Source: Halobacteriales archaeon SW_5_70_135 (GTDB lineage: Archaea; Halobacteriota; Halobacteria; Halobacteriales; SW-7-71-33). From it: DNA of 38,075 bases. The number at the start of each line of letters is the position of its first letter. Position 1 is the first letter of the stretch. Made by a program: the position numbers and the translations under genes. Location: NCBI GenBank assembly GCA_003022865.1, contig PXSK01000005.1:1-38075 (forward strand). The letters are read 5' to 3'. Below, piece after piece: positions 29,949 through 32,693 of the stretch. The notes beneath the pieces were generated by a model. It searched no databases and was not told the origin of the DNA. It was given only the letters and a program-made list of their open reading frames with translations.

Positions 29949-32693
29949 TCACTGCTCCTCGTACAGCCGCTCCACGCGCTCGACCGTGTCGGCGTTCGAG
30001 GGGGCGAGGTCCTCGCGCACCCGCTCGAACCGCGGGAACCGCAGGGCGTACCCCGAGTCGTATTCCGGCGACGCCTGTATCTCCTCGTAGGCCACCTCCA
30101 GCACCACCTCGGGCGCGAGTCGTACTTCGCGGCCGTCCCGTTCCGTGACGAGCTCCTCCAGTCGGTCGGTGAGGTCGGCGAGCTCGGCGTCCGTGTAGCC
30201 CGTCGAGAGCCGGCCGACCTCTCGTAGGTCGTCCTCACCCTCGCCGTCGGGGCCGCGACAGGCCAGATAGAGCCGTCCGAGCATGCTGGAGCGGCGTCCC
30301 TCGCTGTACCGCGCCCGGGTGACGACCAGGTCGAGCGGCTCCATCACCGGCTTCACTTTCGTCATCCGCCCGACGCGACGCCCCGGCTGGTAGGCGGCGT
30401 CGAGGTTCTTCAGCATCAGCCCCTCGTGCCCCACCGCGAGCGTCTCCTCGTACAGCTCGCGCAGACCGGTCTCGCCGCCGTCGGCGTACCGCCGGCTCGC
30501 GGCCCGCTCCAGCTCGTACTCGGCAGGCGACAGCACCGACTCCAGCCGGTCGACCCGCTCGCGGAGCGGCCGGTCGAGCAGTGTCTCGCCCGCCAGGTAC
30601 AGGCAGTCGAACAGGTAGACGACGACGGGGATCTCCTCGGCGATCTCGGGGATGTCGTACTTGCGTCTGATCCGCCGGGAGAACGTCTGGAACGGCACCG
30701 GCTCGCGCGTCTCGGGGTCGTAGCCGACCACCTCGCCGTCGAGGAGCGCGCGGTCGGCGTCGACGTGCTCGCGGACCGCCCGCACGACGTCCGGGAACTG
30801 CTCGGTGACGTCCTCCAGTCGGCGCGTGTAGACCCGCACCTCGTCGCCGTCACGATGGATTTGGCAATTGTGCAGCGTGAGGAGCGGAGCGCAGTAGCTC
30901 TCGTCACCTTTCACCTGAATGTCGTAGACCTTCTGCCGGGGGTCGACTTCACGGGGCGAACTCCGTGACAATTCCTCGTGTTCCAGTATGCGGACCTCGA
31001 TCTTGTCGTCGACGATACGGGCATAGTCGTCCGAGAGAGTGATCGTGAGCTTGTAGTACGTGTTTCCATCGATACGCTGACGGGTTACTCCCATGACGGT
31101 GTCGTGATGGAGTCCGATGAGCTGCATCTTCGATGCTAACGCTCGCTCTTTCGTAGTGACCGAACGGCGACCGAAATCGTCGACGTGGCCGTCAGCCTCT
31201 TCCCATCCTCTCAAGAACCCCTCGAACTGTGACTGTGACAGGTTCCAGAACCAGTCCGGGACCCGCTTGTCTCGCCACCCGTCCTGCGTCTGTTTACGGA
31301 AGTTCCGAGAGAGCCACTCGAACATCGGCCTGTCAGTCCAGTACAGCTCCGTGGCACCACCGTGGTCGTAGGAGCAGACGTTCTCCGGAGAAATTCCAAG
31401 CTCAGTGGTGACGATCTCACGGTACTCCTCTCGCAGCTCCGGATCGTCGTTGTTGAACATCAGTCCGACTCTCCGGTTTCTATTGTATCTGTTCGACGTC
31501 CCGTCTCCGACCCAGTACCCGAGGAACCTGAAGAACCGTTCGTTCGGATCGAACTCTTTCGTGTAATTGCCGGTCGTGCTCAGGACGAGCGGCTCCGACA
31601 GACTGTCGTCAACCTCCGGACTCGGAAGCGGGAAGACGACCCAGTCGTCCCCGCTAATTTTCTCGACTGGAAGCCACGCGTCTCCGCCGGAACGAGCGAC
31701 GAGGAGCTCATGTCCTTCCGTGATTTTGAACGTCTCTCCGAGATAGGTGGAGAAACTAAACACCCGCTCGTCCGAGTCGATCGCGCGTCTGTTTTTACTT
31801 TGTACTGTTCGAAACCGGCCAGTATGTGTTAGGACCTTCTCACCGGGCTGGAGATCTCGCATCACCTTCATGCCGGACCGGGTGTAGACCGGTGTGAACC
31901 CCGACACGCACCTCGCACCGTCGTACTTGGATTCCGCGAGCACGTCCTCGGGATCGTCGGCCACGCTCTCGACGCCGTCGGCGAGTCCGTCGCTGTCGAC
32001 GGCGAGCATCGCGCCGACGGGGCGGAACAGCTCGACGTCCAGCGCGTCCAGGCCCTCGCGGCCCTCGTCGCGGGCGGTCTCGGCGACCAGCGTGTAGTCG
32101 TTGGTCACCTGGTAGGCGCGCTCGACGGCGTCGACCGCGGCCGGGGAGCCGTCGAGGAAGGCGTCGGCCAGGGCGTCGCGGACCGTCCCCTCGCCGACGC
32201 CGATGCGCAGGTGGCCCAGGGCAGTGCGGACGACGTACTTCGCCTCGACGGGGTCGGCGTCGGCCACCAGCCCGGCGACGGCGTCGACGCGGCGACGCTC
32301 GCTGCCCTCGCCCTCGTAGCCGGCCAGCGCGCGCAGCTCGTCGTGGACCCGCTCGACGGTCAGCGACTCCGAGAACAGCGTCTCCTGCGGGGCGTTCGCG
32401 ACCGCCCGTTCGGCCGCCCCGCCGAGGTCGCCGGTCTCCTTCCAGTCCTCCTCGATCGCGTCCGGAGAGACGCCGGTGGTCTTCGCGACGGCCTCGGCGG
32501 TGAGCGAGGAGGAGACGCCGAGGTCGTCGCTGCGGTGGGCCGCGAAGAGGTTGCCCCGGAGGAGTTTTACGAACAGCGGCAACCGGTCGCCGTCGGCGTC
32601 GGCGAGCGTCTCCGCCAGAATCGCCCGCTTCTCCGTGTCGGCGTCCGTGGCGGTCAGGCGCTCGTAGACGTCGACGAGGTCCCCGTAGTCCAT
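29949..32693 (-). CDS. ATP-dependent DNA ligase (archaeal LigI type) precursor interrupted by an intein
   Basis: 914-aa single frame. Host motifs LAESKYDGAR|...|CQIHRDGDEVRVYTRR, LLDGEVVGYDP, VVYLFDCLYL, EGLMLKNLDAAY, KVKPVMEPLDLVV, EVVLEVAYEEIQASP, LRFPRFERVREDLAP. Host without intein is about 566 aa. Confidence 0.96.
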   Translation of the reverse strand: MDYGDLVDVYERLTATDADTEKRAILAETLADADGDRLPLFVKLLRGNLFAAHRSDDLGVSSSLTAEAVAKTTGVSPDAIEEDWKETGDLGGAAERAVANAPQETLFSESLTVERVHDELRALAGYEGEGSERRRVDAVAGLVADADPVEAKYVVRTALGHLRIGVGEGTVRDALADAFLDGSPAAVDAVERAYQVTNDYTLVAETARDEGREGLDALDVELFRPVGAMLAVDSDGLADGVESVADDPEDVLAESKYDGARCVSGFTPVYTRSGMKVMRDLQPGEKVLTHTGRFRTVQSKNRRAIDSDERVFSFSTYLGETFKITEGHELLVARSGGDAWLPVEKISGDDWVVFPLPSPEVDDSLSEPLVLSTTGNYTKEFDPNERFFRFLGYWVGDGTSNRYNRNRRVGLMFNNDDPELREEYREIVTTELGISPENVCSYDHGGATELYWTDRPMFEWLSRNFRKQTQDGWRDKRVPDWFWNLSQSQFEGFLRGWEEADGHVDDFGRRSVTTKERALASKMQLIGLHHDTVMGVTRQRIDGNTYYKLTITLSDDYARIVDDKIEVRILEHEELSRSSPREVDPRQKVYDIQVKGDESYCAPLLTLHNCQIHRDGDEVRVYTRRLEDVTEQFPDVVRAVREHVDADRALLDGEVVGYDPETREPVPFQTFSRRIRRKYDIPEIAEEIPVVVYLFDCLYLAGETLLDRPLRERVDRLESVLSPAEYELERAASRRYADGGETGLRELYEETLAVGHEGLMLKNLDAAYQPGRRVGRMTKVKPVMEPLDLVVTRARYSEGRRSSMLGRLYLACRGPDGEGEDDLREVGRLSTGYTDAELADLTDRLEELVTERDGREVRLAPEVVLEVAYEEIQASPEYDSGYALRFPRFERVREDLAPSNADTVERVERLYEEQ
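30867..31910 (-). mobile_element. Intein, 348 aa, class 1 type, with two-motif LAGLIDADG (DOD) homing endonuclease domain
   Basis: Starts at Cys (KYDGAR|CVSGFTPVYTRSGMKVMRDLQPGEKVL) and ends in LLTLHN before Cys+1 (|CQIHRDGD). Block B ITEGHELLV; DOD motifs FLGYWVGDG and FLRGWEEADG; block F VYDIQVKGDESYCA. Lower GC by eye than the ligase flanks. Confidence 0.95.

What the first reader, a model, noticed from the sequence alone, without database searches (positions are those of the whole stretch)
30867..31910. Full-length intein inside the catalytic KxDG motif of a chromosomal DNA ligase
A 348-aa in-frame element splits the ligase between KYDGAR and CQIHRDGD, five residues after the predicted AMP-accepting lysine. 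Splice-junction residues look competent: Cys1, TxxH-type block B (TEGH), C-terminal HN, Cys+1. The precursor should therefore be inactive until splicing, making ligation strictly dependent on protein splicing. Inteins favour conserved motifs of replication proteins (established). I cannot say from here whether this ligase insertion site has been catalogued.
Basis: partly seen in the sequence, partly recalled or inferred. Interest (0 to 1): 0.82.

Follow-up and report, generated by a model that had tools for sequence, protein, structure and literature searches.

The report
Mobile intein interrupting an archaeal ligase
A salt-loving archaeon carries a self-removing protein insert (an intein, complete with its own DNA-cutting homing enzyme) inside the catalytic motif of its DNA ligase; this kind of insert is already catalogued, but it is rare, it recurs at exactly the same spot in very distant microbes, and it appears to bring along the cysteine it needs for splicing because uninvaded ligases lack it.

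Summary
ORF 29949-32693(-) is an ATP-dependent DNA ligase with a 348-aa intein at 30867-31910, directly after motif I KYDGAR. All splicing residues (Cys1, TEGH, His347-Asn348, Cys+1) and both LAGLIDADG aspartates are present. The AlphaFold2 model (pLDDT 92.9) matches solved intein-endonucleases. A 95%-identical intein-free ligase of exactly the predicted spliced length (566 aa) exists. At least 43 relatives carry the intein at the same site, in Halobacteria, several DPANN phyla and a few bacterial bins. The site is probably not new: Soucy et al. 2014 list a 'ligase' intein allele in one halobacterium. What I add: (1) carriage is rare (2/400 halobacterial species) and changed at least 20 times on the ligase tree, independently of the gene's history; (2) intein-free sites mostly have Val/Ala/Ile at +1, which cannot splice, while carriers have Cys (once Ser); 11 of 13 independent comparisons switch together, 0 oppositely. 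Flanking sequence suggests the Cys arrives by co-conversion. An ordinary, probably active homing intein at an informative site.

The parts
29949..32693 (-). ATP-dependent DNA ligase (LigA-type) precursor gene, 914 aa with intein, 566 aa after splicing
31911..32693 (-). N-extein, 261 aa, ending in motif I KYDGAR (AMP-accepting Lys256)
   Evidence: intein-free orthologues align to residue 261
31911..31928 (-). ligase motif I KYDGAR; Lys256 codon 31926-31928
30867..31910 (-). intein, 348 aa: Hint splicing domain with embedded LAGLIDADG homing endonuclease
31908..31910 (-). Cys1 (N-terminal splice nucleophile)
   Evidence: present in every complete relative
31710..31721 (-). block B TEGH
31500..31532 (-). 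LAGLIDADG motif 1 FRFLGYWVGDG (catalytic Asp136 of the intein)
   Evidence: invariant in ligase carriers, nearly invariant with distant relatives added
31188..31217 (-). LAGLIDADG motif 2 FLRGWEEADG (catalytic Asp240 of the intein)
   Evidence: invariant
30867..30893 (-). block G end CAPLLTLHN with penultimate His347 and Asn348
   Evidence: His-Asn invariant
30864..30866 (-). Cys+1, first C-extein residue; Val in the nearest intein-free ligase
30852..30866 (-). likely co-conversion tract: codons +1 to +5 (TGC CAA ATC CAT CGT) with three A/T-ending codons in a GC3-rich gene
   Evidence: (P = 0.004 for 3 of 5); inferred
29952..30866 (-). C-extein, 305 aa: rest of adenylation domain and OB-fold domain

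Best explanation
This is a class 1, full-length, LAGLIDADG-type homing intein, most likely of the previously reported DNA-ligase intein allele. At the protein level it excises itself (N-S shift at Cys1, transfer to Cys+1, Asn348 cyclisation) and joins KYDGAR to CQIH, giving a normal 566-aa ATP-dependent ligase. At the DNA level its endonuclease is expected to cut intein-free ligase genes at the codons of the adenylation motif, and repair copies the intein in. Because intein-free ligases mostly have Val, Ala or Ile at +1, which cannot support splicing, successful invasion has to carry the +1 Cys codon in with the intein by co-conversion of the adjacent 3' flank. Shown: anatomy, same-site family, empty-site orthologues, tree conflict, +1 switch. 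Inferred: splicing, cutting, co-conversion as the route, inactivity of the precursor. The confidence given is for 'homing intein that splices'; the co-conversion step alone I put at about 0.7.
For: Splice and nuclease residues complete and conserved in the family. AlphaFold2 model pLDDT 92.9; best PDB matches TliVMA intein (7qsu, E 3.5e-18), PI-SceI, PI-PkoII, PI-PfuI. Same junction in all ligase carriers. Intein-free ligase P0033, 566 aa, 95% identical, ungapped over the junction. Halobacterial inteins form one clade (bootstrap 100) although the four ligases that carry them do not (AU p about 1e-43): the intein moved separately from the gene. Presence changes at least 20 times on a 116-ligase tree; on strongly supported branches 11 of 13 independent pairs change intein and +1 Cys/Ser together, none oppositely, sign test p about 0.001. 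+1 in 119 nearest intein-free halobacterial ligases: V 83, I 18, A 9, T 5, others 4, no Cys or Ser. Downstream flank: carrier-versus-free pairs differ 2.55 times more than the protein average in the next 12 residues, against 1.36 in free-versus-free pairs (p about 0.003). GC3 break at both ends.
Against: No splicing or cleavage data exist. The Pfam splicing model is below its curated cut-off. Some DPANN intein-free ligases already have Cys at +1 (10 of 110 scored), so co-conversion is not needed everywhere. The +1 correlation is partly forced by selection: carriers without Cys/Ser/Thr would not splice. The flank test compares few pairs, and that stretch is a variable loop in some ligases.
Confidence: 0.9

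Rival explanations
1. Regulatory reading: splicing is conditional (for example on salt or redox state), so the intein acts as a switch that holds the ligase inactive under stress.
For: The insertion sits at the catalytic motif and Cys1/Cys+1 are redox-sensitive in principle; a salt-dependent Halobacterium salinarum intein is cited in PMC7765530 (reference title only).
Against: Carriage is very patchy (2 of 400 species), the nearest relative lacks it, and the endonuclease motifs are intact, all as expected for a selfish homing element; LigN is a likely backup.
Confidence: 0.08
2. Degenerate or non-splicing insert: the ligase is dead and tolerated because LigN is present.
For: LigA can be lost or deleted: no LigA match in 4 of 20 near-complete relatives; not essential in Haloferax.
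Against: All splice residues intact, no frameshift, exteins 95% identical to an intact ligase with full length kept; +1 Cys is kept in every carrier except one Ser.
Confidence: 0.03
3. The +1 Cys was already present in the recipient (rare Cys alleles are the real targets) rather than imported by co-conversion.
For: About 9% of close DPANN intein-free ligases do have Cys at +1, plus one nanohaloarchaeal ligase, L106.
Against: No Cys among 119 nearest intein-free halobacterial ligases; sisters of carriers have Val or Ala in Halobacteria and Nanohaloarchaea; excess flank differences.
Confidence: 0.25

Closest known systems
'ligase' intein allele of Soucy et al. 2014 (PMC4071816), ATP-dependent DNA ligase I, one halobacterium
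   Same: Same host gene type; the only other halobacterial species among 400 found here to carry it is Natrinema (formerly Haloterrigena) thermotolerans (60% intein identity), a species that survey included.
   Different: The paper's text does not give the position; the window intein is a divergent member in a second LigA lineage (NF041331 score 485, cut-off 830).
MCM-d intein of Haloarchaea (PMC10643990)
   Same: Empty sites mostly encode a splice-incompetent +1 residue (Pro) and occupied ones Ser; co-conversion of the +1 codon is inferred there too.
   Different: Different gene and intein; there co-conversion is described as infrequent, here nearly all halobacterial and nanohaloarchaeal carriers appear to need it.
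TliVMA intein and PI-SceI (7qsu, 1vde), LAGLIDADG inteins
   Same: Hint plus two-motif LAGLIDADG architecture; TM-score about 0.5-0.64 by query.
   Different: 14-19% identity, different host gene.

Membership tests
Class 1 intein | Cys/Ser at position 1 | tested here: met
   Cys1
Class 1 intein | block B TxxH | tested here: met
   TEGH
Class 1 intein | C-terminal His-Asn followed by Cys/Ser/Thr | tested here: met
   LHN|C
Class 1 intein | Hint fold | tested here: met
   AlphaFold2 and Foldseek
Class 1 intein | in-frame insertion absent from orthologues, which align across the junction | tested here: met
Class 1 intein | protein splicing activity | not testable with these tools
   needs expression
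LAGLIDADG homing endonuclease | two LAGLIDADG motifs with catalytic Asp | tested here: met
   Asp136 and Asp240 of the intein; LAGLIDADG_3 E 4.3e-10
LAGLIDADG homing endonuclease | cuts the intein-free allele | not testable with these tools
   needs cleavage assay
Soucy 2014 'ligase' intein allele | intein in ATP-dependent DNA ligase I of Halobacteria | tested here: met
Soucy 2014 'ligase' intein allele | identical insertion position | tested here: inconclusive
   Natrinema thermotolerans has it at this site, but the paper's text does not name the carrier or position
LigA_Halo equivalog NF041331 (ordinary haloarchaeal LigA) | score over curated cut-off 830 | tested here: not met
   485.1 bits, while intein-bearing P0003-P0005 score 933-953

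The most novel reading that the evidence does not exclude
The ligase intein is one long-lived homing lineage that has repeatedly entered ligases of Halobacteria, of DPANN archaea including the Nanohaloarchaea that share their habitat, and perhaps of bacteria and viruses, at a site whose native +1 residue cannot splice, each time importing its own cysteine by co-conversion; it is thus a natural record of individual homing events across phyla.
Probability: 0.4. Interest if true: 0.55.

Novelty: new member of a known kind. Interest (0 to 1): 0.38.

Why it matters
As an intein it is ordinary. Its use is as a clean test case: a target motif under strong constraint, a +1 residue that must change for splicing to work, and close carrier/free pairs that would allow single invasions and their co-conversion tracts to be measured. 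It also documents one intein site shared by Halobacteria, several DPANN phyla and bacterial bins.

Tried and rejected
Considered that the ligase itself came from Nanohaloarchaea because it scores below the LigA_Halo cut-off and first grouped with a nanohaloarchaeal ligase (L090). Wider sampling showed a broad second LigA lineage in Halobacteria (Halorientalis, Halovenus, Haladaptatus and others), so I dropped it. Considered that the sister relation of halobacterial and nanohaloarchaeal inteins proves transfer between the two; it does not, because the ligase tree has a similar deep split. PDB sequence search gave only a weak hit (PI-PkoII, E 9e-4); PHROGs gave only unnamed families. A nucleotide-level comparison with the empty-site sister of the window was not possible: the nearest free ligase P0033 was found as protein only.

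Full report
OBSERVATION. The minus-strand ORF 29949-32693 codes for 914 aa. Pfam places DNA_ligase_A_N at 3-176, DNA_ligase_A_M at 611-781 and DNA_ligase_A_C at 802-895, with LAGLIDADG_3 and Intein_splicing between. Motif I reads KYDGAR; the predicted AMP-accepting Lys256 is followed by five residues and then the insert. GC3 falls from 0.96 to 0.72 inside the insert and returns to 0.92 after it.

IDENTITY. A search with the insert in its protein context found 29 other ATP-dependent ligases at E below 1e-70, all with the insert at the identical junction KxDGxR|C ... HN|C, plus one weak ribonucleotide-reductase-type hit. Cys1 is present in every complete member, and the final His-Asn and the two LAGLIDADG aspartates are invariant. 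An AlphaFold2 model built on 21 inteins has mean pLDDT 92.9, and its best solved matches are intein-endonucleases: TliVMA, PI-SceI, PI-PkoII, PI-PfuI. This is a full-length intein with an apparently intact homing endonuclease.

EMPTY SITES. Intein-free ligases align without a break: for example G001, G004, G017, G129 and G140 match query residues up to 261 and from 610 (or 611) in adjacent bases. The nearest one, P0033 from Halobacteriales archaeon SW_7_71_33, is 566 aa, the exact spliced length, and 95% identical without gaps; at the junction it reads KYDGAR|VQLH where the window reads KYDGAR|CQIH.

DISTRIBUTION. In a scan of 85,488 species genomes the same-site intein appears in Natrinema thermotolerans, Nanoarchaeota, Woesearchaeota, Pacearchaeota, Diapherotrites/Iainarchaeota, Micrarchaeota, an Altiarchaeales bin, a Nanohaloarchaeon (partial), and bins labelled Daviesbacteria, Aminicenantes and 'bacterium'. 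The bacterial labels may partly be binning errors; the two Daviesbacteria records are separate. Frequency is low: 2 of 400 halobacterial species, 3 of 382 and 2 of 28 genomes in two DPANN phyla. Soucy et al. 2014 recorded a 'ligase' allele in one halobacterium and described the gene as not previously known to be invaded. I found no paper in the held library on its DPANN distribution, which is weak evidence of absence.

MOBILITY. The four halobacterial inteins form one clade (bootstrap 100 / SH-aLRT 99), but their ligases lie in three distant places: the window's in a second LigA lineage, Natrinema and Natronococcus together, P0003 with another family. Holding the four ligases together is rejected (AU p about 1e-43). 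On a tree of 116 ligases the intein changes state at least 20 times. So the intein has moved without the gene. Whether it moved directly between Halobacteria and Nanohaloarchaea cannot be told, since the deep split of the intein tree resembles that of the ligase tree.

THE +1 RESIDUE. Splicing by this kind of intein needs Cys, Ser or Thr at +1 (established; stated in PMC10643990). All carriers have Cys, one has Ser (L018). Intein-free sites in the 119 closest halobacterial ligases have V 83, I 18, A 9, T 5, others 4; DPANN relatives mostly Ala, with Cys in 10 of 110. Mapped on the tree with that column masked, 13 independent carrier/free pairs on strongly supported branches show intein and +1 Cys/Ser switching together in 11, oppositely in 0 (sign test p about 0.001), even though I added Cys- or Ser-bearing free ligases on purpose. 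The residues just downstream also differ more than expected between carrier and free sisters (ratio 2.55 against 1.36 in free-free pairs, p about 0.003), the upstream ones do not, and in the window three of the first five downstream codons end in A/T in a GC3-rich gene. The simplest reading is co-conversion of a short 3' flank during homing. The same phenomenon has been inferred for the MCM-d intein, where it is infrequent. The absence of a Cys scar in most free sisters argues against precise deletion as the usual route of loss; that is inference.

CONSEQUENCE FOR THE HOST. The precursor is probably inactive because the adenylation domain is split at motif I; this is inference. It does not follow that the cell depends on splicing: LigN passes its cut-off in 27 of 31 genomes sampled from the order, is not found in this 63%-complete MAG, and in Haloferax volcanii either ligase can be deleted, though not both. 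LigA itself is undetected in 4 of 20 near-complete relatives.

VERDICT. A real, probably active homing intein at a known type of site. I rate it a new member of a known kind, with moderate interest for the +1 co-conversion pattern and for its wide but sparse spread.

Noticed in passing
own genome G000: L119-L126 (contigs C12, C25, C35, C36, C38, C41): The genome is loaded with inteins: splicing-domain hits lie in ORFs for MCM (1986 aa, several inteins), ribonucleotide reductase (2662 aa), family B DNA polymerase (2217 aa), DNA polymerase II large subunit, GyrB, dCTP deaminase, XPB helicase and RtcB.
   Followed up: partly
L125:1415-4807(-) (G000:C36): A SpoVR-family ORF of 1131 aa with an intein C-terminal splicing hit; SpoVR is an unusual intein host gene.
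   Followed up: no
L046:1667-9031(+): A contig classed as viral has a 2455-aa ORF with a ligase domain interrupted at the same motif (KFDGFR|CC...HN|C) by a distant relative of the intein (about 30% identity), plus a D12 methyltransferase, HNH and LAGLIDADG domains. A possible viral carrier of the site.
   Followed up: partly
window 29949-32693(-): The ligase belongs to a second halobacterial LigA lineage (about 42% identical to the ordinary LigA of the same family's G001), seen also in Halorientalis (once on a plasmid), Halovenus and Haladaptatus; G002 (99% complete) shows only this type.
   Followed up: partly
window 3399-17185(-): S10/spc ribosomal protein cluster (L3, L4, L2, L14, S4e, L32e, L19e, L18, S5, L15, SecY) on the same contig, which makes the ligase chromosomal.
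   Followed up: yes
window 33846-36908(+): Dna2-like nuclease/helicase, divergently oriented and close to the ligase and a calcineurin-like phosphoesterase.
   Followed up: no
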